A DNA stretch of 10,491 nucleotides from an uncultured Thalassospira sp. (GTDB lineage Bacteria > Pseudomonadota > Alphaproteobacteria > Rhodospirillales_A > Thalassospiraceae): positions 1 to 10,491 of the forward strand of contig CAMPHD010000078.1 of assembly GCA_946885765.1 (NCBI GenBank), written 5' to 3'. The position numbers and the translations under genes are program-made. Positions 1 through 10,491 of the stretch are shown in pieces. The stretch's first letter is position 1; each line of letters starts with the position of its first letter. Under the pieces are notes generated by a model, which was not told where the DNA came from, searched no databases, and was given only the letters and a program-made list of their open reading frames with translations.

Positions 1-545
1 TGGACGGCGACCAAGGATGACGAGCAAGCGGTGTCGATGATATTTGCCGGACCGTGCCAGTCTTTTAGGAAGGACAGGCGTGTGACCATGTTCGAGGGCA
101 CGTTAAGGGCAAAGACCTGTTCGGCCCTGTCACGTGCGACATGTTCCATGGCAACGCGCCATGCCGGGTTTGCCCCGCCACCGGCAAAAATGCCGACCTT
201 TTTACCGCGTAGTGCCTGCCCGCCATAACCGGCATTTTCCATCGCCATCAGGGCGGTTTCGATAAACAGGCGCTGTTCCGGGTCGATCAGGGCGGCGTCA
301 GCCGGTGCCATGCGGAAACGGCCCGGATCGAAATCAAAGATGCGGTCAAGATAGGCGGCTTCGCGGAAGCGGGCCGGAACCGGACGGCCGATGGCGGCCA
401 TCATGTCGCGGGTTTCATGATCGCGTTCGGGCGGAAGTGGTCGGACGCCATCCGTGCCGCGGGCGATATCAGCCCAAAATGTATCGATGTCGTCCGCCCC
501 GGCAAGCTGAAGCCCGATGCCGATCACCGCAATCGGTTCGTCGGT
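1..545 (-). other. KS2: ketosynthase domain, truncated at the window edge
   Basis: It begins EPIAVIGIGLQLAGADDIDTF (residues ~2173-2193) and runs through DPEQRLFIE and a GPANIIDTACSSSLVAV active-site segment (Cys2344, codon 24-26). The half carrying the two catalytic histidines lies outside the window. It marks the switch back from peptide to polyketide chemistry: it should extend the seryl chain with a ketide unit to give a serine-derived gamma-amino acid. Whether a cis AT follows cannot be seen. Confidence 0.93.
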
Positions 546-3500
546 GGCAAGCTGGGCACCTTGTGCCGTTGCAAGATCGTCGGTTGCGATATTCAACCCG
601 GCCAGTAGTTCGGCCTGACGGGCGATGGTGGCGCTGGCGAACAGGTCGGCGATGCTGACCTTGCCGGGCCAGCGGGTATTGATTTTTTCATGCAGGCGCA
701 GCAGCAAAAGCGAATTGCCGCCGACATCAAAGAAACCGTCTTCTCGATCCGCCAGTACACCAGGCAGGATTTCCTGCCACAGCCGTTGCAGAACGCGTTC
801 CAGATTTGCCAGATCAATATTTTCGGCGTCGGTCTTTGCCGCGATAGCCGGTTTTGATTTCCGGTTGGCGACTTTTGGCGACCCTGCTATCGGTGTCCCC
901 GAAAGGGCCTTTCGGTCGACCTTGCCGCTGCTGGTGAGAGGCAGGTGATCAAGGGCAAAGAAACGTGCCGGGATCATATATTCGGGCAGGCGGGTGCGCA
1001 GATGATCGCGCAGGACACCAATGGTCAGTTCACCGTCACCCAGTACAAAGGCATGCAATTCATCAAGGTCGCCAACCCGCACCGCCTTGACCAGGGCGCG
1101 TTCAACCAGATCGTGGCTTTCGATCGTGGTTTCGACTTCGCCGCATTCGATGCGGAAGCCGCGAATTTTGACCTGATGATCGATCCGGCCAAGATATTCG
1201 ACCGATCCGTCGGCAAGGAAGCGGCCCAGATCACCAGTGCGATACAGTTTATGGCCCGGATTGCGGGGATCATCGGGGAACTTTTCGGCGGTCAGTTCAG
1301 GGCGGTTGCGATAACCGCGCGCGATTTGTGGCCCACCCAACACGATTTCACCCGAGACGCCAATCGGCATGTCGCGGAGTTTGGCATCAAGGATGCGAAT
1401 GGTGGTGTTGGCAATCGGTTTGCCGATGGGAACGATATCGGGATTATCAAGCGGAGAGCAGGCATGCCAGGTGACATCCACCGTCGCCTCGGTCGGGCCG
1501 TAAAGGTTATGCAGTTCGGTCCCGAAGCGATCAAACAGCAGATCGTTGAAGCGTTTTACCAGTGCGGGATCAAGTGCCTCACCACTTGCGAAAACGCGTT
1601 TGAGGCTGCCAAGGTTTTCGATATCGACCAGCCCGTGTTCGACCGAGAACAGGAAACTTGCCAGCATCGAAGGCACGAAATGCATGGTGGTGACGCCATG
1701 ATCGCGAATGGTCTGGGCCAGTTGTTGCGGATCGCGTTCAACGCCCGGATCGGGCAGGACAACGCGCGCCCCGGTCCATGACCACCAGAACAGTTCCCAT
1801 ACCGAAACATCGAATGTGATCGGGGTTTTTTGCAAAATGACGTCATCAGGGCCAATCGGGAAGGTGTCCTGCATCCAGAGGATACGGTTCAGAACGCCGA
1901 GATGGGCGATTTCGACACCTTTCGGGCGACCGGTTGAGCCGGATGTGAACAGCACATAGGCAAGGTCATCGGGTGCGTTGATCGCATCAGGGATATCGGC
2001 ATCTTCGGTGCCATCGATGATCAGAACATTGTCGAGGTCAAACAGATGGGCGAGATCGGCGGTGGTGATGACACGCGGATAGTCAAGATCATCAAGCATG
2101 TCCTTGCGGCGCTGTTCGGGGTGATCCGGGTCAAGGGGGCTATATGCCGCACCACATAGAAGGATCCCGTGAATGGCGGCCAGCATATCGACCGACCGTC
2201 GCACGGCAACGCCGATCACATCACCTGGACCAATTGATGCTGCGCGCAGTTTCGCGGCAATCCCGGCGGCACGACGGGTGAATTGTTCGTAACTTAGGGT
2301 TTCAGATGTTCCGATAACCGCAGGTGCGGTTGGCGTGGCGCGGACCTGATCAAGGAACGGTTCGGAAATGCTGCGTTCAATCGCAAGGTCAAGATCGGTG
2401 GCATTGAATTGATCGATCCGGGCGCGTTCGTCCGCCGGCAAGATCGGCAATTCGTCGATTTTGATTGTCGATGGTTTGGACAGGGCGGCGCAGGCAAGGA
2501 TTTCAAGGCGGTTGAAAATTGCCTGAATGGTGGGTTTGTCAAACAGGTCGGTATCAAATTCGATCTGGCATAGAAGGGCGTCGTTCCGTTTGCTGAAATA
2601 GAATGCAAGATCGAATTTCGAGAACGGGAATTCGGTTTTCAGAAGCGAGAGTTCGGCATCGCCAAGCTTGCCAAGGTCGGGGATGCTGTCCTGCCATGCG
2701 ACCAGAACATCAAATAACGGATTGCGTGCAGGATCGCGCGGCGCATTGACGTCGGCAACCACATCCTCGAACGGGGCGGCCTGATCGGACAGGGCATCAA
2801 TGATGGTTTTGCCGGTTTGGGTCAGATGATCGTCAAATCCGGCATCCGGATCGACATTCTGACGCAGAACGACGGTGTTCACAAAGAAGCCGACCACGTC
2901 ATCAAGGGCGGTCTGTTCACGGCCCGCCACCAGCATGCCAAGAGGGATATCGGTCTGCCCGGATTGCCGGTACATCAGGATTTGCACAAAGGCGGTCAGA
3001 ATGGAAAACGCGGTTGTGCCGTGCCGGTCCGCCGCATCATTGATCAGACGCGCGGTTTCTTCGCCAAAGGCCGTTTCATGGAAATCACCGGCGAAACGGC
3101 GCGCCTTGGGACGGCGGCGATCCGTTGGCAGGGCCAATGGTTCAGGCAGAGGCAACAGCCGTTCTTTCCAGCGGGCCAGCAAATCCTTGCCGTCGGCTGA
3201 GCTTAAATAGCTGTGTTGCCAGCTTGCAAAATCCTCGTAATGGCGGTCAAGCAATGGCAACGATGGGGTGGCTATTCCGGTTTCTGCGGCATAAAGGGCT
3301 GCAAGATCGCGCAGCAATGTCGGCATCGACCAGCCATCGCAAATCGCATGATGCAGGGAAACCAGCATCCAGTGACGGTTGGGGGCGAGCGTGATCAGAT
3401 CGGCCCTTGCCAATGGTTTGTTTTCAAGGTCGAAGGGACGGACGGTTTCGCGCGCGATGAACAAGCGGGCGGGGCCTTCGTCCATTTGGTGGCGACCAAG

Positions 3501-6500
3501 CATCCATGAACCGGCGGGTGCCAGATACTGGCTGACGCCATCCGGGTGATGCGGATCGGATTTGAACCGCAGACGTAGCGCATGTTGCCGTTCTTCAAGT
3601 TTGTGCAGGGCGGCCTGCAGGGCATCGGCATCAATCGGCCCATTGATTTCAAACGCGGCAGGGACGGAATAAACCGCCATGTCGGGCTGCATGCGTTGCA
3701 GGACCCAAAGACGGGCCTGTCCGCTTGAAAGCGGGAATTTCGGGCCGTCTGCCTTTGGAATCAGGAATTGTTCGCCATTCTGTTTATGGTCGGCAAGCAG
3801 GGTTGCGATCCCGCCGACTGTGCGGGCGACAAAGATATCCTGAAGTTTCGGGCGGATGCCGGTGGATTTTTCGAGCAACCCGGCAAGGCGCATGGCGACA
3901 AGGCTGTGTCCGCCCAATGCAAAGAAATCCGACGATGCGGTGATGTCACTGTTGCCAAACAGGGCTTTGAAATGGTCGGCAACGATCTGTTCGAGTTCGC
4001 CGCTGCTGTTGGCGTTGCCGGTTTGGGGAGCAAGTGGTGCTGTGTTCGTCAGGGTATCAAGAAGCTGTTTGCGATCCACCTTGCCATTCACATTGACCGG
4101 CAGATGATCCAGGACGACAAACCGTTCGGGGATCATGTAATCGGGCAGATTGCGGCCAAGGATTTGCATCCAGACACTGCTGTTATCCTGATCGGCGGCG
4201 ATGGCGGCACCAAGGAAGGCATCGGCACCACTGCCGACCGGCATCACGCAGGCATTGCGAATGCCATCAATCTGGCTCAATCGTTTTTCAATGGCGGCGG
4301 TTTCAATCCGGTGTCCGCGAATTTTGACCTGCCCGTCACGACGGCCACCAAATTCAATCACGCCATCCGCCCGCCAGCGCGCGCGGTCGCCGGTTTTGTA
4401 AAGGCGGGTTTCGGGCAAATGATCGAACGTGACGAATGCCTTGGCGGTGCGTTCGGGCGCGCCGGAATATCCCAGCGCCAGCCCGTCGCCCGCGGCATAA
4501 AGTTCACCCCATACCCCGGTCGGAACCGGTTGCCCGCCTGCATCAAGAATATAGGTGCGTGTGTTGCCAATCGGCCGACCAATCGGAATGTTTGCCGATT
4601 TCACATCGTGCGGCGTGATCGGGTGGATACAGGTAAAGGTGGTATTTTCCGTCGGGCCATAGCCGTTGATCAGGGCAAGGCCCGGGCAGGCGGTCATGAC
4701 TTTTTGCAGGTGGGTAGGGCTTAGTGCCTCGCCCCCGGAAAGCAGTCTTTTGAGCGGGGCAAAGCAACCCGGGGTATCATCGGCGATACGGTTAAACAGG
4801 CTTGCGGTCAGCCACATGGTGGTGACGCCGCCATCGTTAAGGGCATTGCGAAGGACTGCCGGATCAAACAGGGTTTCGTTATCAATCAGAACCAGTTTGC
4901 CGCCATTCAGAAGCGGTGCCCAGATTTCAAGGGTTGCGGCATCAAAACCAAGTGATGCGGCCTGTGCCATGACATCGGTGTCATCAAATGCAAGTGCCCG
5001 ATTGTTCACAGCCAGACGGGCGACAGCCCGGTTGGGGATCTGCACCCCTTTGGGCGCACCGGTCGAGCCGGACGTGAACATGACATAGGCCAGATCATCG
5101 CCAGCACGTTTGGCAAAGGATGCATTTGATGTTGCGTTGGCGTCGGGAAGATGTGCGATGCGAACGCGATCAGAAATGCCCGACAGGCGATCAAATTCGG
5201 TGTTGTCGCACAAAAGAACGTTGGCACTGCATTCTTCCATCAGGGCGGCAATGGCATCGGCAGGCAAAGATTTATCAATCGGCAGATAAGCAGCACCGTG
5301 CCAGGCAATGCCAAGAATAGTGATAATCGCATCAAGCGAACGATCCGCGGCAAGGGCGACGATTGAGTCCGGTGCAACATCAAGGGCATCAAGCCCTGTG
5401 GAAATGGCAGCGACCCGTTGCCCCAAAGCACTATAGGTGATTTTGTGATCGCGATCCTGCAGGGCGATCTTGCTCGCGTTGGCCGGGTTTGTGATCTGCC
5501 GGGCGAGCAATTCGCCAAGGCCGCAGTCACGCGGGTAATCCGATGTGGTATCGTTGAGCGAGATGGATAGTTGATCGCGTTCGTCTTCGGGAAGAATATC
5601 CACAAGACCAAGCGGTATTTCCGGGCTTTTGGCAAGCGTCCGCGCAAAAGTCAGGAAACGTTTTGCAAAACGTTCGATCCATGCTTCGCCATAGATATTG
5701 CTTTGATATTCGACGGCCAAAGATGTTTCCGCACCGTTTTTCATCATGCCGACCATCAGGGGGAATTTGCCCGCCCCGAAGTCGAGATCTTCGATCACGA
5801 AGGGGCTGTCGCTGATTTCCATTACGTGGACGGCATCGAATGGCTGACCGGTCGGGCCCTGTGCTGCCTGTGTCAGATCGTGAACCAGACGCGACAGGGG
5901 ATAATCCTGCACATCAAGTATGGACAGGACCTCGTGCCCGACCTGCTTGGTCAGGGCATCAAGGTTATCTGCCATATCCGGTTTGATCGCGACGGGCAGG
6001 ACATTCACAAAACAGCCCATCGACTGCATGGTTTCCTTGTCCCTGCGACCGGCAAAGGGCAGCCCTATGATAGCTGTGCCGTTTTCCTTGTGCCGGGCGA
6101 TCACGGCGATGGTCAACGCGGCCCAGAGTGTGGTCTGTGTCGTTTTGCGGGTATGGCTGGCAAGCTTTGCGAAAGCGTCGGCGTCAGCGCCTGTCAGTTC
6201 GATCAAAAGCCGTTTGCCACCACCGTTCCGATCCGCTGCCGGGTCATCAGGTAGTCCGGCGGATAGCAGTTTATCGGTTCGTGCCGACCAGAAGTTCCGT
6301 GCGATTTCGCCGCGTTCCCGATCCAGATTGCGATGCGCATTACGCACAAGTTCTTCAATATCGGGGATGTTTCCGGGGGTGTCTCCGGCAAGAATTCCAA
6401 GAAGTTCTTCTTGCAGCAACATGACCGACTGGCCATCAAAACACAGATGATCGATTGCCATGGCCAGTTGCGGAGCTTGTCCATCGTCATGTTCGATATA

Positions 6501-7055
6501 GCCAAACCGGGCCAAAGGACCGGTGGCGAGATCAAAAAGACCATGACGGATTTCACGGGTGGTTTCGATCTTGCGCACCGTTACCGGCATGTGGGCATGC
6601 ACACGCTGGATCAGTTGGCCGTCCTGTTCAACAAAGGTGGACCGGAGGGCATCATGGCGTTTCACAATGACGGCAATCGCATCACGGACGGCGGTGAAAC
6701 CGGTTCCTTCCGGGAGGTTGAAGCCCGTGACGATATGGTAATTGGTGTTTATCGGCTGATCGCGCCTTGCAATCCATTGTCCTTCGATGGCGGGATGGGC
6801 CGGGAAGGATTTGAGGATTGGACCGGCGGTGGAACCCTTATTTTCCGGTTCGACTGGTGCGCGTAGCAAGCTGATGATTTCAGCCTTCAGGTCACGGGTT
6901 TCGGATTTCAGGTCATCGTCAAACGCACCAGTCGGTGCATCAAAACAAAGATCGCGCCCGTTGGCATGCAGGCTTAGCACGATGTCGCGCTGACGGAGTT
7001 TATCAAGCAGGTCGAGTGCGGTTTGCGTGCGGCGTAACAGTTGATCGGTATTCAT
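1..7055 (-). CDS. Hybrid NRPS/PKS, TubC-docking-C-A(Val-like)-PCP-C-A(Ser)-PCP-KS..., 3'-truncated by the window edge
   Basis: This is a cytosolic multimodular synthetase. It should condense the polyketide chain from the preceding PKS with a valine-like amino acid and then serine, and hand the peptidyl chain to a ketosynthase in the same protein. The frame is open from ATG 7055 to base 1, 2351 codons without a stop. Every catalytic motif checked lies in this one frame, so no frameshift is needed. Domains: docking (~4-66), C1 (~72-488, DHLCFDG at 202-208), A1 (~505-1000), PCP1 (~1020-1086, Ser1051), C2 (~1105-1535, HHAICDG at 1235-1241), A2 (~1560-2055), PCP2 (~2084-2151, Ser2115) and KS2 (from ~2171, Cys2344). 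The start is supported by an AGGGAG ribosome-binding site 7 bases upstream and by the complete docking domain that follows. There is no epimerisation domain. The rest of KS2 and anything after it lie outside the window. Confidence 0.96.
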   Translation of the reverse strand, partial: MNTDQLLRRTQTALDLLDKLRQRDIVLSLHANGRDLCFDAPTGAFDDDLKSETRDLKAEIISLLRAPVEPENKGSTAGPILKSFPAHPAIEGQWIARRDQPINTNYHIVTGFNLPEGTGFTAVRDAIAVIVKRHDALRSTFVEQDGQLIQRVHAHMPVTVRKIETTREIRHGLFDLATGPLARFGYIEHDDGQAPQLAMAIDHLCFDGQSVMLLQEELLGILAGDTPGNIPDIEELVRNAHRNLDRERGEIARNFWSARTDKLLSAGLPDDPAADRNGGGKRLLIELTGADADAFAKLASHTRKTTQTTLWAALTIAVIARHKENGTAIIGLPFAGRRDKETMQSMGCFVNVLPVAIKPDMADNLDALTKQVGHEVLSILDVQDYPLSRLVHDLTQAAQGPTGQPFDAVHVMEISDSPFVIEDLDFGAGKFPLMVGMMKNGAETSLAVEYQSNIYGEAWIERFAKRFLTFARTLAKSPEIPLGLVDILPEDERDQLSISLNDTTSDYPRDCGLGELLARQITNPANASKIALQDRDHKITYSALGQRVAAISTGLDALDVAPDSIVALAADRSLDAIITILGIAWHGAAYLPIDKSLPADAIAALMEECSANVLLCDNTEFDRLSGISDRVRIAHLPDANATSNASFAKRAGDDLAYVMFTSGSTGAPKGVQIPNRAVARLAVNNRALAFDDTDVMAQAASLGFDAATLEIWAPLLNGGKLVLIDNETLFDPAVLRNALNDGGVTTMWLTASLFNRIADDTPGCFAPLKRLLSGGEALSPTHLQKVMTACPGLALINGYGPTENTTFTCIHPITPHDVKSANIPIGRPIGNTRTYILDAGGQPVPTGVWGELYAAGDGLALGYSGAPERTAKAFVTFDHLPETRLYKTGDRARWRADGVIEFGGRRDGQVKIRGHRIETAAIEKRLSQIDGIRNACVMPVGSGADAFLGAAIAADQDNSSVWMQILGRNLPDYMIPERFVVLDHLPVNVNGKVDRKQLLDTLTNTAPLAPQTGNANSSGELEQIVADHFKALFGNSDITASSDFFALGGHSLVAMRLAGLLEKSTGIRPKLQDIFVARTVGGIATLLADHKQNGEQFLIPKADGPKFPLSSGQARLWVLQRMQPDMAVYSVPAAFEINGPIDADALQAALHKLEERQHALRLRFKSDPHHPDGVSQYLAPAGSWMLGRHQMDEGPARLFIARETVRPFDLENKPLARADLITLAPNRHWMLVSLHHAICDGWSMPTLLRDLAALYAAETGIATPSLPLLDRHYEDFASWQHSYLSSADGKDLLARWKERLLPLPEPLALPTDRRRPKARRFAGDFHETAFGEETARLINDAADRHGTTAFSILTAFVQILMYRQSGQTDIPLGMLVAGREQTALDDVVGFFVNTVVLRQNVDPDAGFDDHLTQTGKTIIDALSDQAAPFEDVVADVNAPRDPARNPLFDVLVAWQDSIPDLGKLGDAELSLLKTEFPFSKFDLAFYFSKRNDALLCQIEFDTDLFDKPTIQAIFNRLEILACAALSKPSTIKIDELPILPADERARIDQFNATDLDLAIERSISEPFLDQVRATPTAPAVIGTSETLSYEQFTRRAAGIAAKLRAASIGPGDVIGVAVRRSVDMLAAIHGILLCGAAYSPLDPDHPEQRRKDMLDDLDYPRVITTADLAHLFDLDNVLIIDGTEDADIPDAINAPDDLAYVLFTSGSTGRPKGVEIAHLGVLNRILWMQDTFPIGPDDVILQKTPITFDVSVWELFWWSWTGARVVLPDPGVERDPQQLAQTIRDHGVTTMHFVPSMLASFLFSVEHGLVDIENLGSLKRVFASGEALDPALVKRFNDLLFDRFGTELHNLYGPTEATVDVTWHACSPLDNPDIVPIGKPIANTTIRILDAKLRDMPIGVSGEIVLGGPQIARGYRNRPELTAEKFPDDPRNPGHKLYRTGDLGRFLADGSVEYLGRIDHQVKIRGFRIECGEVETTIESHDLVERALVKAVRVGDLDELHAFVLGDGELTIGVLRDHLRTRLPEYMIPARFFALDHLPLTSSGKVDRKALSGTPIAGSPKVANRKSKPAIAAKTDAENIDLANLERVLQRLWQEILPGVLADREDGFFDVGGNSLLLLRLHEKINTRWPGKVSIADLFASATIARQAELLAGLNIATDDLATAQGAQLATDEPIAVIGIGLQLAGADDIDTFWADIARGTDGVRPLPPERDHETRDMMAAIGRPVPARFREAAYLDRIFDFDPGRFRMAPADAALIDPEQRLFIETALMAMENAGYGGQALRGKKVGIFAGGGANPAWRVAMEHVARDRAEQVFALNVPSNMVTRLSFLKDWHGPANIIDTACSSSLVAV
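603..806 (-). other. PCP2: peptidyl carrier domain
   Basis: A carrier fold with FFDVGGNSLLLLRL; the phosphopantetheine serine is residue 2115 (codon 711-713). It holds the seryl chain and is followed by a ~20-residue linker and then KS2, so the chain should pass from a peptidyl carrier directly to a ketosynthase. Confidence 0.92.
891..2378 (-). other. A2: adenylation domain, predicted serine
   Basis: It activates serine and loads PCP2. Core motifs are FTSGSTGRPKGV, TFDVSVWELFWW, MHFVPSML, FASGEALD, LYGPTEATVDVTW, LYRTGDLGRF and SSGKVDRK (Lys2045). Residues aligned to the GrsA pocket are D1749, V1750, W1753, H1792, then F, S, L, V, D and K2045, giving D-V-W-H-F-S-L-V-D-K. This is the serine code known from EntF, and the flanking stretches also resemble EntF. 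Confidence 0.92.
2451..3743 (-). other. C2: condensation domain, canonical active site
   Basis: It should join the chain on PCP1 to the serine on PCP2. The first core motif is PLSSGQARLWVLQRM, and the active site is HHAICDGWS (residues 1235-1243) with both histidines intact. Further on are FFVNTVVLR and a DAAPFEDVV-like region (QAAPFEDVV). These features fit the ordinary LCL class, consistent with the absence of an epimerase before it. Confidence 0.92.
3798..3998 (-). other. PCP1: peptidyl carrier domain
   Basis: A carrier fold with SSDFFALGGHSLVAMR; the phosphopantetheine serine is residue 1051 (codon 3903-3905). It lies between A1 and C2 and holds the valine-like residue. No epimerisation domain follows, so the residue should keep the L configuration unless C2 is a dual-function domain. 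Confidence 0.93.
4056..5543 (-). other. A1: adenylation domain, predicted valine-like substrate
   Basis: It activates an amino acid as its adenylate and loads PCP1. Core motifs are FTSGSTGAPKGV, FDAATLEIW, GYGPTENTTF, LYKTGDRARW and NGKVDRK (Lys992). Specificity residues aligned by hand to GrsA are D705, A706, L709, then W, L, G, G, T, F and K992, giving D-A-L-W-L-G-G-T-F-K. From memory the classical valine code is D-A-F-W-I-G-G-T-F-K, matching at 8 of 10. Valine is the best guess; isoleucine or another branched residue is possible. Confidence 0.85.
5592..6842 (-). other. C1: condensation domain, atypical active-site motif
   Basis: It should form the amide between the beta-ketoacyl chain on ACP2 and the amino acid on PCP1. 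The core motif reads DHLCFDG (residues 202-208) instead of HHxxxDG. The second, catalytic His (203) and the DG are kept; only the first His is replaced, by Asp. The N-terminal motif is also degenerate (PAIEGQWIARR in place of the SxAQxRLW type). This fits a specialised domain that accepts a polyketide donor rather than a peptidyl donor. Confidence 0.87.
6858..7046 (-). other. TubC-like N-terminal docking domain
   Basis: Residues ~4-66 of the NRPS follow the TubC docking layout. First comes a helix (LLDKLRQRDIVL), then two short strands around a turn (LSLHANGRDLCFDAPTGAF), then a second helix (DLKSETRDLKAEIISLLR). The family is known to recognise the C-terminal peptide of the preceding synthase. 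Its presence right after a PKS gene with a short tail supports the order PKS then NRPS. The call rests on pattern recognition, not a profile search. Confidence 0.8.
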
Positions 7056-7068
7056 TACAGCACTCCCT
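7053..7068 (-). promoter_or_regulatory. Overlapping stop/start (TAATG) with internal Shine-Dalgarno
   Basis: On the minus strand, AGGGAG (7063-7068) is followed by a 7-base spacer and then ATG (7053-7055). The PKS stop TAA (7055-7057) shares its final A with that ATG. The ribosome-binding site therefore lies inside the last codons of the PKS gene. This arrangement is typical of translational coupling and suggests that the two partner subunits are made in a fixed ratio from one transcript. It also fixes the start of the NRPS gene. Confidence 0.85.
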
Positions 7069-10000
7069 GTTCGCGTGTCGAAAGGGGGGCTGCTGGCACA
7101 GACGGAGTATTGGTAGGCGCGCTGTTTTTATCAAAGGATGCAATCAAGTTGGCAACACCCGAAACCGTGCGGCCTTCGAACATTACGGCAGCGGGAATTT
7201 CGGCATTCAGGACTTCGGAAAGGCGTGTTGCGATCCGGACGGCAAATAATGAGTCGCCGCCAAGTTCAAAGAAATCGTCATCTGGGCCGATTGCCGGATC
7301 GCCAAACATATCGCGCCAGATCGCCAAGATGGTGAATTGCGCCTGTGTATCGGATTGGATATCCGGCGCATTCTGTGCGATGGGCATTGTGGCCTCCGCC
7401 GGGGCGGCGGAAACGGCGAAAGGTTTCGGATCGGCGGTTGTGGTGATTGCCTTGTCCGGCCAGAACCGGCGCCGGTCAAAGGCATAGGTTGGCAACGGGA
7501 TGCGGCGGGCGTTGGTGGTTTGATTCACCCGGTCCCAATCGGGAGCAGTTCCCATGACCCAAAGCCGGGCAATCGTCGCGGCCAGTGCATTTGATCCGGT
7601 GATCGTGGCATTTGCATTTCGGGCAGTGTCGAGACCGGGGGCCGGTTGCAGGGCAATGCTGTTGCCGGTCGGTGTGCCGTTGACGATGGCAAGGCGGCTT
7701 GCCGTGTTGCCAAAGCCGCATTCGACCATGATCGTTTCGGGCATTCCGGCCAAAAGTTCCTTGATGTTATCGGCAAAGCGCACCGCATTGCGCAGATGTT
7801 GAACCCAGTAATCGGGATTGGTCGCGTCTTCGGGTGTCAGCCTATTACCTGTCAGGTTCGACTGGATCGGAACGGTTGGTACGTTCAGCCTGATTTTGGC
7901 GACCACATTGCGGAATTCGTCCAGAACCGGTTCCATCATGCGGGAATGGAAGGCATGCGAAACCACAAGCCGGCGGCCGGATTTACCCTGTGATTTGATG
8001 TGTTCTTCAAGTGCGTCGATACATTCGTTGCTGCCAGCCACCACGCATTGACGCGGGCCGTTGATTGCCGCCATCGACAGATCGGGGCCAAAGGCCGACA
8101 GCAGATCCCCGACTTCGGCTTCTGTCATGGACAGGGCAAACATTGATCCCGGTTCGGTCTGTCCCATCAGACGACCGCGCGTGACCACAAGGCGAAGCGC
8201 ATCGTCAAAGGACATGACCCCGCCAATGCAGGCTGCGACATATTCGCCAATGCTGTGCCCGGCCAGCGCGGCGGGTGAAATGCCGTTTTCGATCAGCCAG
8301 CTTGCCAGTGCATATTCATAAACGAACAGGGCGGGCTGGGCGATTTCGGTACGTGCCATGCGGCTTGATGTTGCCGGACTTTCATCGGGAACGGTCAGCA
8401 ATTCAAAAAGATCATCGGGGCCGCCGATCTTGACGACCTGCTGGCAGGCATTGCGGATCAGCACCGCCGAAGTTTGATCTGCCGCATAAAGGTCGGCGGC
8501 CATGCCCGGTCGTTGTGATCCCTGACCGGGGAAAAGGAAAGTGATGGACGGAGTGTTGCGTTGGGCGACGGCCTGATGACGGGCGGGCGATTTCGGGTTT
8601 GCCAAGGCGGAAATCGCCGTGTTGATGTTTGAGGTAATGATTGCGGTTCGAAACCGGTAGGCGTGCCGCCGTGACAGGCTGTTTGCAACATCGGATATCG
8701 ATATGCCTGACCCGTTGCGGTCAAGCCAGCTTGCGGTATTGGTCAGCAGCTTCTGCAAGGCGGTTTCGCTTGCAGCCGAGAAGGGCAGAATATGGGGAAT
8801 ATCGTTTTTTGGCGTGGGTGATGCCGGTTTATCGGCTCGTGGGGCTTCTTCGATGATGATATGTGCATTGGTGCCACCAACCCCGAAGCTGCTGATACCG
8901 CCACGCAGCGGTTCATCGCCGCCACTTGATAATGGTTGAGCAATACTGTTTACCCGAAATGGTCCCTGATCCAGGCCAAGATTTTCATTTGGTTGATTGA
9001 AATGGCAGGTCGGCGGGAATGCCCGGTGACGGATTGCCAGTACGGCCTTGATCAGACCGGCAATTCCGGCGGCACTGTCCAGATGGCCGATATTGCCCTT
9101 GACCGAGCCAAGCCAGATCGGGTGCGTTGGGGATGTACCGGTTTTTGCATATGCCTTGTTGAGTGCGGCGATCTCTATCGGGTCGCCAAGGGCGGTTGCG
9201 GTTCCGTGGCCTTCGACAAAGCGGATGGTGACGGGATCGATTTGGGCATCGTCAAGGGCGGTTTGAATCGCCTTGGTCTGTCCATCGACAGAAGGCGCGG
9301 TAAAGGCAGCCTTCGCCGAACCGTCATTGTTCATGCCGACGCCCTTGATCACCGCATGGATGGTGTCCCTGTCGGCGATGGCATCATCAAGACGTTTCAG
9401 AAGGACAATGGCCGCACCGCTGCCGCCGACAACGCCGTCTGCCTTGCTGTCGAATGGGCGGCAGACACCGCTTCGCGATCCGATGCCGCCCTGCGTGAAG
9501 TAATATCCCCCGGCCGGGCTAAGCCCAAGGGTCGCACCACCGGCAAGGGCGACACGGCACTGGCCGGATCGCAATGCTTCTACGGCAAGCGCAATATTGA
9601 CAAGGCCGGTCGAACAGGCGGTCGAGGATGCGATGGCAGGGCCGGTCAGGTTCAGCTTGTAGGCAAGCCGTGTTGCGGCAAAATCCTTGTCATTGCCGAG
9701 TGTCATGCCATAGCGGATAGCATCGGGGCGGTCGCGCAGGCGATCACGCAGGTTGTCGACCAGATAGGTCGGGAAACCAACCCCGACATAAGCCCCAACC
9801 GGGCCGTCACGCGCCGGATCACATGCCCCGTCTTCAAGGGCACCAAGGGCAACTTCAAGCAGCAGGCGTTGCTGCGGGTCTGTTTCGATGGTTTCGCCCG
9901 CAGTCATGGCAAAGGGCGCGGGATCGAACATATCGATATCGTCAAGAATCCCGTGGCGTGCGACAAAATCGGCGTCTTCCAGTGCTGATGGATCACCACC

Positions 10001-10491
10001 CAGCGTGCGCAGGCGGGAAATATCAACGTCCTTTATCTGATCGACGCCGTTTTCAAGCATCGACCAGAAGGTGTCGCGATCATCCGCACCGGGCAGGCGC
10101 ATCGCCATGCCGATAATTGCAATGTCATGATTTTCAGACACATTGCGTTGGGTCTTTACCGGTTCGGCCTTTGCGATTTCGGGAACTGTCTGGTTATCGG
10201 CACACAGGTGAAGGGCAAAGGAATTGATCGTCGGGTGCTGGAATATTTCCACAGACGCAATGTTGTGCCCGGCGAGTTTTGACAGGGCAAACTGTGCGCG
10301 CGGTACCAGCAATGAATGGGCGCCAGCTTCAAACAGGTTGGTATCGAATTCAATTTCGTCGGTTTCGATCAGATCCATCCAGATTTTGGCAATTTTTCCG
10401 GCCATTTGATGAATGCGCATCTGATCGGGTTTGCGGGATGCGGGGGGCGGCGTTTCTTGTACAACAGGCTGTTTGCCGCCCGGGGCCTGAG
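7055..10491 (-). CDS. Type I modular polyketide synthase, ACP-KS-AT-ACP, 5'-truncated by the window edge
   Basis: This cytosolic multienzyme adds one malonate unit to a chain received from upstream domains and holds it on its C-terminal carrier. Numbered from the in-frame Met at 10420, the domains are ACP1 (~4-73), KS1 (~97-522, Cys269, His405, His446), AT1 (~622-915, Ser723, HAFH at 822-825) and ACP2 (~1027-1096, Ser1057). A 25-residue tail follows. There is no space for KR, DH or ER, so the product should stay beta-keto. The Met at 10420 is not the start: the frame stays open for 23 more codons to the edge through a Pro-rich linker, and ACP1 would otherwise begin abruptly. The TAA stop at 7055-7057 overlaps the next gene's ATG, indicating co-transcription and coupled translation. 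The PKS assignment is very secure; the product is unknown. Confidence 0.96.
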   Translation of the reverse strand, partial: QAPGGKQPVVQETPPPASRKPDQMRIHQMAGKIAKIWMDLIETDEIEFDTNLFEAGAHSLLVPRAQFALSKLAGHNIASVEIFQHPTINSFALHLCADNQTVPEIAKAEPVKTQRNVSENHDIAIIGMAMRLPGADDRDTFWSMLENGVDQIKDVDISRLRTLGGDPSALEDADFVARHGILDDIDMFDPAPFAMTAGETIETDPQQRLLLEVALGALEDGACDPARDGPVGAYVGVGFPTYLVDNLRDRLRDRPDAIRYGMTLGNDKDFAATRLAYKLNLTGPAIASSTACSTGLVNIALAVEALRSGQCRVALAGGATLGLSPAGGYYFTQGGIGSRSGVCRPFDSKADGVVGGSGAAIVLLKRLDDAIADRDTIHAVIKGVGMNNDGSAKAAFTAPSVDGQTKAIQTALDDAQIDPVTIRFVEGHGTATALGDPIEIAALNKAYAKTGTSPTHPIWLGSVKGNIGHLDSAAGIAGLIKAVLAIRHRAFPPTCHFNQPNENLGLDQGPFRVNSIAQPLSSGGDEPLRGGISSFGVGGTNAHIIIEEAPRADKPASPTPKNDIPHILPFSAASETALQKLLTNTASWLDRNGSGISISDVANSLSRRHAYRFRTAIITSNINTAISALANPKSPARHQAVAQRNTPSITFLFPGQGSQRPGMAADLYAADQTSAVLIRNACQQVVKIGGPDDLFELLTVPDESPATSSRMARTEIAQPALFVYEYALASWLIENGISPAALAGHSIGEYVAACIGGVMSFDDALRLVVTRGRLMGQTEPGSMFALSMTEAEVGDLLSAFGPDLSMAAINGPRQCVVAGSNECIDALEEHIKSQGKSGRRLVVSHAFHSRMMEPVLDEFRNVVAKIRLNVPTVPIQSNLTGNRLTPEDATNPDYWVQHLRNAVRFADNIKELLAGMPETIMVECGFGNTASRLAIVNGTPTGNSIALQPAPGLDTARNANATITGSNALAATIARLWVMGTAPDWDRVNQTTNARRIPLPTYAFDRRRFWPDKAITTTADPKPFAVSAAPAEATMPIAQNAPDIQSDTQAQFTILAIWRDMFGDPAIGPDDDFFELGGDSLFAVRIATRLSEVLNAEIPAAVMFEGRTVSGVANLIASFDKNSAPTNTPSVPAAPLSTREQGVL
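7058..7132 (-). other. Putative C-terminal docking tail of the PKS
   Basis: Twenty-five residues follow ACP2. They are rich in Pro, Ala, Ser and Thr and look disordered until the last ten, PLSTREQGVL. A short charged and hydrophobic terminal peptide is what TubC-type beta-hairpin docking domains bind, and the next protein begins with such a domain. The pairing is inferred from position and composition; it is not proven. Confidence 0.55.
7133..7342 (-). other. ACP2: acyl carrier domain at the end of the PKS
   Basis: A carrier domain with DDDFFELGGDSLFAVR; the phosphopantetheine serine codon is 7250-7252. It carries the newly extended beta-ketoacyl chain and is the donor for C1 of the next protein. 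GGDSL is the common NRPS-compatible carrier motif, fitting a handover to a condensation domain. Confidence 0.92.
7676..8557 (-). other. AT1: malonyl-CoA acyltransferase domain
   Basis: It loads the extender unit onto ACP2. Visible motifs are FPGQGSQRPGM near the start, the active site GHSIGEY (Ser codon 8252-8254), an Arg-containing RGRLMG segment, and HAFH (first His codon 7955-7957). HAFH at this position is the established signature for malonyl-CoA rather than methylmalonyl-CoA (YASH). The post-AT linker ends in a typical LPTYAFDRRRFW stretch (about 7465-7500) and leads with only a short spacer to ACP2, leaving no reductive domains. Confidence 0.92.
8855..10132 (-). other. KS1: ketosynthase domain
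   Basis: A decarboxylating Claisen condensation domain. The catalytic Cys (codon 9614-9616) sits in STACSTGLVN, and the two catalytic histidines sit in GHGTAT (codon 9206-9208) and NIGHLD (codon 9083-9085). The GSVKGNIGH lysine and a C-terminal VGGTNAH are also present. The surroundings of the Cys and of the first His depart from the usual DTACSSS and AHGTGT, but all catalytic residues are kept, so it should be active. Confidence 0.93.
10202..10411 (-). other. ACP1: first acyl carrier domain of the PKS
   Basis: A carrier-protein fold with the phosphopantetheine attachment motif GAHSLL; the modified serine is encoded at 10313-10315. It lies directly upstream of KS1, so it should be the donor carrier that feeds KS1. 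The domain it belongs to (loading module, earlier PKS module or NRPS module) lies outside the window. A Pro/Ala-rich linker (about 10420-10489) precedes it. The GAHS form differs from the GGDS form in ACP2 and is common among PKS/NRPS hybrid carriers. Confidence 0.85.

What the first reader, a model, noticed from the sequence alone, without database searches (positions are those of the whole stretch)
1..10491. Predicted assembly: acyl-malonate(keto)-Val-Ser-ketide hybrid lipopeptide or peptide-polyketide
The domain order and pocket codes predict ...CO-CH2-CO-Val-Ser-KS. A serine handed to a ketosynthase would give a 4-amino-5-hydroxy-pentanoyl or -pentenoyl type unit. As I recall, such units occur in thalassospiramide lipopeptides, but here an unreduced malonate unit precedes Val. 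I do not recognise a known cluster with exactly this visible order, so the product could be new.
Basis: partly seen in the sequence, partly recalled or inferred. Interest (0 to 1): 0.7.

Follow-up and report, generated by a model that had tools for sequence, protein, structure and literature searches.

The report
Thalassospiramide assembly-line genes, middle part
The window is the middle of a known kind of gene cluster in the marine bacterium Thalassospira that builds thalassospiramides, lipid-tailed peptides that block the human protease calpain, so it is most likely not a new product family.

Summary
"Product could be new" is not supported. The nearest held genome, identified as Thalassospira lucentensis MCCC 1A02072, carries the whole window at 95% and shows the complete cluster: C-A-T-KS-AT-T / docking-C-A-T-C-A-T-KS-DH-KR-T-T-C-A-T-C / A-MT-A-T-TE. 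This fits published descriptions of the thalassospiramide (ttc) cluster: seven modules, Val-(Ser+malonate) core, then Val and N-methyl-Tyr from an interrupted A domain, single NRPS locus. A diverged form lies on Tistrella mobilis plasmid pTM1. The unit before Val is an acylated amino acid, not a plain acyl, and probably does not stay a ketone: thalassospiramide G carries a 3-hydroxy unit before Val, and published work invokes inter-module tailoring and pass-back. Open point: a review says the pathway seems to use trans ATs and its scheme legend names no AT, whereas the window has one in cis, so a cis-AT variant is possible. The CNJ-328 reference genes and the three primary papers were not held. 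Verdict: already known.

The parts
7055..10489 (-). 3' part of ttcA-like gene (about the first 982 residues lie outside the window)
   Evidence: open frame; its four domains are 95-99% identical to G001 protein A
10196..10480 (-). T1 carrier domain (end of module 1), FEAGAHSL at 10333-10310
8846..10135 (-). KS1 ketosynthase, module 2; STACST (Cys), EGHGT and KGNIGH motifs present
7634..8560 (-). AT acyltransferase, module 2; GHSIGE and HAFH (malonyl-type, recalled)
7121..7345 (-). T2 carrier domain, module 2; no KR found between AT and T2
3..7055 (-). 5' part of ttcB-like gene (2351 codons; the G001 protein has 5189); ATG at 7055-7053 overlaps the stop of the gene before by one base
6831..7055 (-). 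TubC_N docking domain
5556..6827 (-). C2 condensation domain (DHLCFDG motif: first His of the usual HHxxxDG is Asp, second kept; same in G001, G010, G024)
4026..5525 (-). A2 adenylation domain, code DALWLGGTFK, Val predicted
3780..3995 (-). T3 carrier domain, module 3
2406..3755 (-). C3 condensation domain (HHAICDG)
876..2360 (-). A3 adenylation domain, code DVWHFSLVDK, Ser predicted
576..770 (-). T4 carrier domain, module 4
3..545 (-). KS2 N-terminal part (DTACSS at 35-18), start of module 5; cut by the window end

Best explanation
The window is the middle of the thalassospiramide-type NRPS-PKS cluster (end of ttcA, start of ttcB) of a Thalassospira strain close to T. lucentensis MCCC 1A02072. 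TtcA couples a fatty acid to an amino acid (C1-A1-T1) and adds malonate (KS1-AT-T2). TtcB adds Val (C2-A2-T3) and Ser (C3-A3-T4); then KS2-DH-KR-T-T, which has no AT of its own, extends Ser by a malonate-derived unit and reduces and dehydrates it to a 4-amino-5-hydroxy-pentenoyl unit (AHPEA). C4-A4-T adds Val, and C5 with TtcC (A interrupted by a methyltransferase, T, TE) adds N-methyl-Tyr and closes the 12-membered lactone. Shown here: genes, domains, motifs, codes, relatives. From papers seen: seven modules, iteration over modules 2-4, inter-module tailoring, pass-back, calpain inhibition. Inferred: that the module-5 KR reduces the module-2 beta-ketone, where the AT-less module gets its malonate, the chemistry of each step, and that this strain makes the compounds.
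For: Whole window at 95% in G001 on a contig of 174,502 bases, the length of Thalassospira lucentensis MCCC 1A02072 NZ_LPVY01000025.1, whose protein matches at 95%. Complete three-gene, seven-module cluster in G001, same order in G010 and, but for a truncated TE, in G024. Review: the CNJ-328 ttc cluster has 7 modules and Thalassospira genomes have a single NRPS cluster (section read); here each of 7 of 7 genomes searched has five C domains (in G025 one is split into two matches), in 6 of 7 on the contig that holds this cluster. TtcC is tabulated as an A domain interrupted by a methyltransferase between a2 and a3; protein C has a methyltransferase inside its A domain. Thalassospiramide G runs decenoyl-ADPA-Val-AHPEA, and the last two modules of the pathway add Val and N-methyl-Tyr, as the Val, Ser and Val-like codes predict. 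Diverged cluster on Tistrella mobilis KA081020-065 pTM1, 46.6% over 96% of the window's second protein. A Fodinicurvata sediminis protein (P0012), of a genus the review lists as bearing a ttc cluster, is C-T-KS-AT-T, so it too has the cis AT.
Against: No alignment to the CNJ-328 ttc genes: neither they nor the three primary papers were held. The review says the pathway appears to use trans ATs from primary metabolism, and its scheme legend for CNJ-328 names neither AT nor DH; the window has an AT in cis and the relative a weak PS-DH match. Either the review simplifies, or this is a cis-AT variant. PMC11355689 labels the TtcC A domain A6; I count it as the fifth A domain. The codes of A5 in protein C, DGVDVGAVSK, and of A1, DPHMIGCIHK, match no substrate code known to me. 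The window's own assembly is not held, so its own flanks were not seen.
Confidence: 0.94

Rival explanations
1. A new lipopeptide cluster: beta-ketoacyl-Val-Ser-ketide with the malonate left unreduced.
For: Module 2 has no KR; A1 of the relative has an unusual code, DPHMIGCIHK; the published scheme legend names no AT while this cluster has one.
Against: The complete relative cluster has seven modules, Val, Ser and Val-like codes and an interrupted A domain, as published for ttc; its C domains are the only ones found in the genomes searched; thalassospiramide G has a 3-hydroxy unit before Val.
Confidence: 0.04
2. A thalassospiramide-type cluster that makes unreported congeners in this strain, because A1 and the pass-back step are flexible (a refinement of the best explanation, not exclusive of it).
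For: 37 family members share the macrocycle, with variable N-terminal parts, made almost all by single flexible systems; A1 codes differ between strains (DPHMIGCIHK in G001, DPLMIGCIHK in G010 and G024).
Against: A2 and A3 codes of the window equal those of G001, G010 and G024, so nothing in the window predicts a difference; A1 of this strain was not seen.
Confidence: 0.12
3. A decayed, silent remnant of a ttc-type cluster.
For: One relative, G024, keeps only about 79 of 259 residues of the TE domain; some strains with the cluster had no detectable product (review).
Against: Both frames of the window are open and catalytic motifs are present; differences from G001 concentrate at third codon positions, 312 of 483.
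Confidence: 0.02

Closest known systems
Thalassospiramide cluster ttc of Thalassospira sp. CNJ-328 (Ross 2013, not held; described in PMC5577590)
   Same: Genus; seven modules; Val-(Ser+malonate) core; interrupted A-MT in the last protein; single NRPS locus. Protein names TtcB and TtcC seen; the three-gene layout of CNJ-328 is recalled, not seen
   Different: Identity not measured. The review's scheme legend names no AT or DH and its text speaks of trans ATs; the window has a cis AT
ttc-type cluster of Thalassospira lucentensis MCCC 1A02072 (G001; NZ_LPVY01000025.1)
   Same: Whole window collinear, same length, 95.4% identity; same A2 and A3 codes
   Different: 483 of 10,491 bases, 312 of them at third codon positions
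Tistrella mobilis KA081020-065 pTM1 cluster (taken by me as ttm)
   Same: C2-A2-T-C3-A3-T-KS-DH-KR-T-T-C and a separate A-MT-A-T-TE protein; A3 code identical, A2 code DALWMGGTLK
   Different: No A1, KS1 or AT found and only a fragment of A4; one long first gene; 46.6% identity
Didemnin and pepstatin statine pathways
   Same: Amino acid plus malonate gives a statine-type unit (PMC12081711, passages)
   Different: Different products and organisation as described in the papers; not compared by sequence here

Membership tests
Thalassospiramide (ttc) cluster | Seven modules, the first C-A-T, the last two adding Val and N-methyl-Tyr | tested here: met
   Seven modules in G001 against the review's count and PMC3705361; module 6 A code Val-like, module 7 has A-MT; the module-7 substrate is not shown by its code. 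The window itself covers the end of module 1 to the start of module 5
Thalassospiramide (ttc) cluster | Val then Ser activation ahead of a KS | tested here: met
   Codes DALWLGGTFK and DVWHFSLVDK in the window, literature codes
Thalassospiramide (ttc) cluster | Last protein: A domain interrupted by a methyltransferase (a2/a3), then T-TE | tested here: met
   Interruption, T and TE seen in G001; table row in PMC11355689; the a2/a3 site itself was judged from position only; outside the window
Thalassospiramide (ttc) cluster | Only NRPS cluster in a Thalassospira genome | tested here: met
   Five C domains in each of 7 of 7 relatives, one contig in 6 of 7; G016 is split over three contigs. Not testable in the window's own genome
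Thalassospiramide (ttc) cluster | PKS module with KR and without AT after the Ser module | tested here: met
   KR and no Acyl_transf_1 match in protein B of G001
Thalassospiramide (ttc) cluster | AT supplied in trans, no AT in the cluster (review's remark and legend) | tested here: not met
   AT in cis in module 2. I treat this as doubtful as a defining feature, since it comes from one sentence and a legend and Fodinicurvata P0012 has the AT too
Thalassospiramide (ttc) cluster | Close sequence match to CNJ-328 ttc genes | not testable with these tools
   Sequence and primary papers not held
Thalassospiramide (ttc) cluster | Production of thalassospiramides by the strain | not testable with these tools
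   No metabolomics; strain unnamed
Thalassospiramide (ttc) cluster | First module loads Phe/Tyr | tested here: inconclusive
   A1 is outside the window; G001 A1 code DPHMIGCIHK matches no code known to me

The most novel reading that the evidence does not exclude
The window belongs to a cis-AT, three-gene variant of the ttc cluster that differs from the CNJ-328 scheme as the review draws it, and the strain makes unreported congeners. The natural series in the genus (complete; or reduced as in G002, which keeps C1 and the AT but lacks A1, KS1 and A4) would let one test which domains inter-module sharing and pass-back can replace.
Probability: 0.18. Interest if true: 0.3.

Novelty: already known. 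Interest (0 to 1): 0.12.

Why it matters
It closes the lead: the window belongs to a studied pathway to nanomolar calpain inhibitors (PMC4350077, passages) known for passing the chain back along the assembly line. It is also a caution: module content alone (no KR) probably mispredicts the oxidation state, because this pathway shares domains between modules.

Tried and rejected
Rejected: a new product family (architecture, codes and single-locus test). No near match was found in the plasmid collection, which says nothing about plasmids not held; the nearest genome has the region on a 174,502-base contig. Considered from recall only: epoxyketone, syringolin and andrimid type pathways; not tested.

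Led nowhere: PDB sequence searches of the two A domains gave general NRPS relatives, LgrA first, with EntF among the hits of both; not used for the specificity call. NCBIfam gave general NRPS and PKS models, none of the listed equivalogs over its cut-off. Protein search: 4114 of 7991 scored candidates passed 1e-100 and 120 are listed; none of the names shown there (many blank or cut) says thalassospiramide. Searches with thalassospiramide terms did not bring up a text on the strains behind my loci, except that PMC4157779 (passages) lists T. profundimaris S25-3-2 as MCCC 1A01318 from Indian Ocean surface seawater; 1A02072 and 1A03138 do not occur in it. I did not search for this strain's cluster under its own name, because the strain is unknown. 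Of the papers listed for thalassospiramide plus acyltransferase I looked, on this point, only at review passages, so the cis/trans AT question stays open.

Full report
What is in the window. Two long frames on the - strand, 10489-7055 and 7055-3, have no internal stops. The stop of the first and the ATG of the second share one base. Pfam gives T-KS-AT-T, then TubC_N-C-A-T-C-A-T-KS with the KS cut by the window end. Motifs for KS, AT, C and T domains are present. The codes are DALWLGGTFK and DVWHFSLVDK, Val and Ser by codes in print (passages).

Where it comes from. The window's own assembly is not held. G001 holds all 10,491 bases at 95%. A position-by-position count gives 95.4%, with 483 differences, 312 of them at third codon positions; 283 codons differ silently and 157 change the amino acid. 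G001's contig (174,502 bases) has the length of NZ_LPVY01000025.1, Thalassospira lucentensis MCCC 1A02072. One search found 8 loci encoding a relative of the first protein (20 stretches had matched a pattern): 3 in Thalassospira at 73-95%, and 5 at 34-39% (a Rhodobacteraceae bacterium, Roseibaca, Pseudotabrizicola, Streptomyces, Nostoc).

The whole cluster. In G001 three genes of 2126, 5189 and 1174 residues overlap by one base at each junction. Domains: C-A-T-KS-AT-T; docking-C-A-T-C-A-T-KS-DH-KR-T-T-C-A-T-C; A-MT-A-T-TE. The DH match (PS-DH) is weak, 25.9 bits in the long piece and 29.1 when that stretch is scanned alone, against a cut-off of 23.7; PKS_DH_N is below its cut-off. No AT match appears in the second protein. 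That makes seven modules. G010 has the same map; G024 too, except that about 79 of 259 TE residues are left.

Why thalassospiramide. The review PMC5577590 (section 2.2 read whole) says the ttc cluster of CNJ-328 has seven modules, that the chain goes back through modules 2-4, and that Thalassospira strains have a single NRPS cluster. A condensation-domain search found five C domains in each of 7 of 7 genomes (in G025 one of them as two matches); in 6 of 7 they lie on the contig that holds this cluster, in G016 on three contigs. PMC11355689 (table row) lists TtcC with an A domain interrupted by a methyltransferase at a2/a3; the third protein has such an insertion. PMC3705361 (first of four parts read, plus passages) gives decenoyl-ADPA-Val-AHPEA for thalassospiramide G, repeated Val-gamma-amino-acid units, and Val plus N-methyl-Tyr from the last two modules. 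The A4 code, DAFFMGGTFK, I judge Val-like; no paper was found with it. The A1 and A5 codes I could not assign.

What does not fit. The same review says the pathway appears to use trans ATs from primary metabolism, and its scheme legend for CNJ-328 names neither AT nor DH. The window has a cis AT in module 2. A Fodinicurvata sediminis protein, from a genus the review lists as carrying a ttc cluster, is C-T-KS-AT-T, so a cis AT is not confined to the window's group. Whether CNJ-328 has it I could not see: its sequence was not found, and Ross 2013, Zhang W. 2016 and Zhang J.J. 2020 were not held. The A-domain number in PMC11355689 (A6) differs from my count (fifth).

Why the malonate probably does not stay a ketone. 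Module 2 has no KR. Yet thalassospiramide G carries the 3-hydroxy unit ADPA before Val. [quoted passage not shown] That the module-5 KR does the reduction is my inference from its being the only KR match in the three proteins of G001.

Distribution. By DNA, 36 of 80 relatives have some match, but only 6 of 28 Thalassospira genomes match over at least 10,435 of 10,491 bases (at most three candidates per genome scored). By protein, 13 of 29 Thalassospira genomes match at 1e-150: 7 over residues 1-2351 at 77-96%, and 6 from residues 73-78 onward at 60-64%, without the docking domain. Of those six only G002 was mapped: C1-T-T-AT, then C2 onward, with no A1, KS1 or A4 found. Tistrella mobilis KA081020-065 has a diverged version on pTM1 without A1, KS1 or AT and with a fragment of A4. 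The review says the Tistrella module-1 A domain is truncated, which fits. That this is the published ttm is my identification; PMC9964501 (passages) only says thalassospiramide clusters were studied in Tistrella.

Verdict. Observation confirmed. The novelty claim is not supported: this is a ttc-type cluster, already known, with an open question on the cis AT. The names ttcA and ttcB for the window's genes are given by likeness of layout. Interest low.

Noticed in passing
L023:7894-11673 (G002): Reduced Thalassospira cluster: the fused first gene keeps C1, two T domains and the AT but has no A1 or KS1, and A4 is missing further on. A natural test of domain sharing between modules.
   Followed up: partly
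L025 and L026 joined (G024), position 28813-31845: The last protein of this relative has only about 79 of 259 TE residues, and no further TE match lies in the 38 kb fetched.
   Followed up: partly
P0015: A Pokkaliibacter plantistimulans protein of 2162 aa has the full C-A-T-KS-AT-T order of the TtcA-like protein, 41% over 99%; a possible TtcA-like starter in a genus not named in the review section.
   Followed up: partly
L027/L028 (G038): A genome of the same order but another family has a TtcA-like 2074-aa and a shorter TtcB-like 4045-aa protein with a Ser code and a partly read Val-like code.
   Followed up: partly
L008:9652-10413 (G001): A possible phosphopantetheinyl transferase gene (PF17837, 27.1 bits against a cut-off of 27) lies directly beside the cluster.
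   Followed up: no
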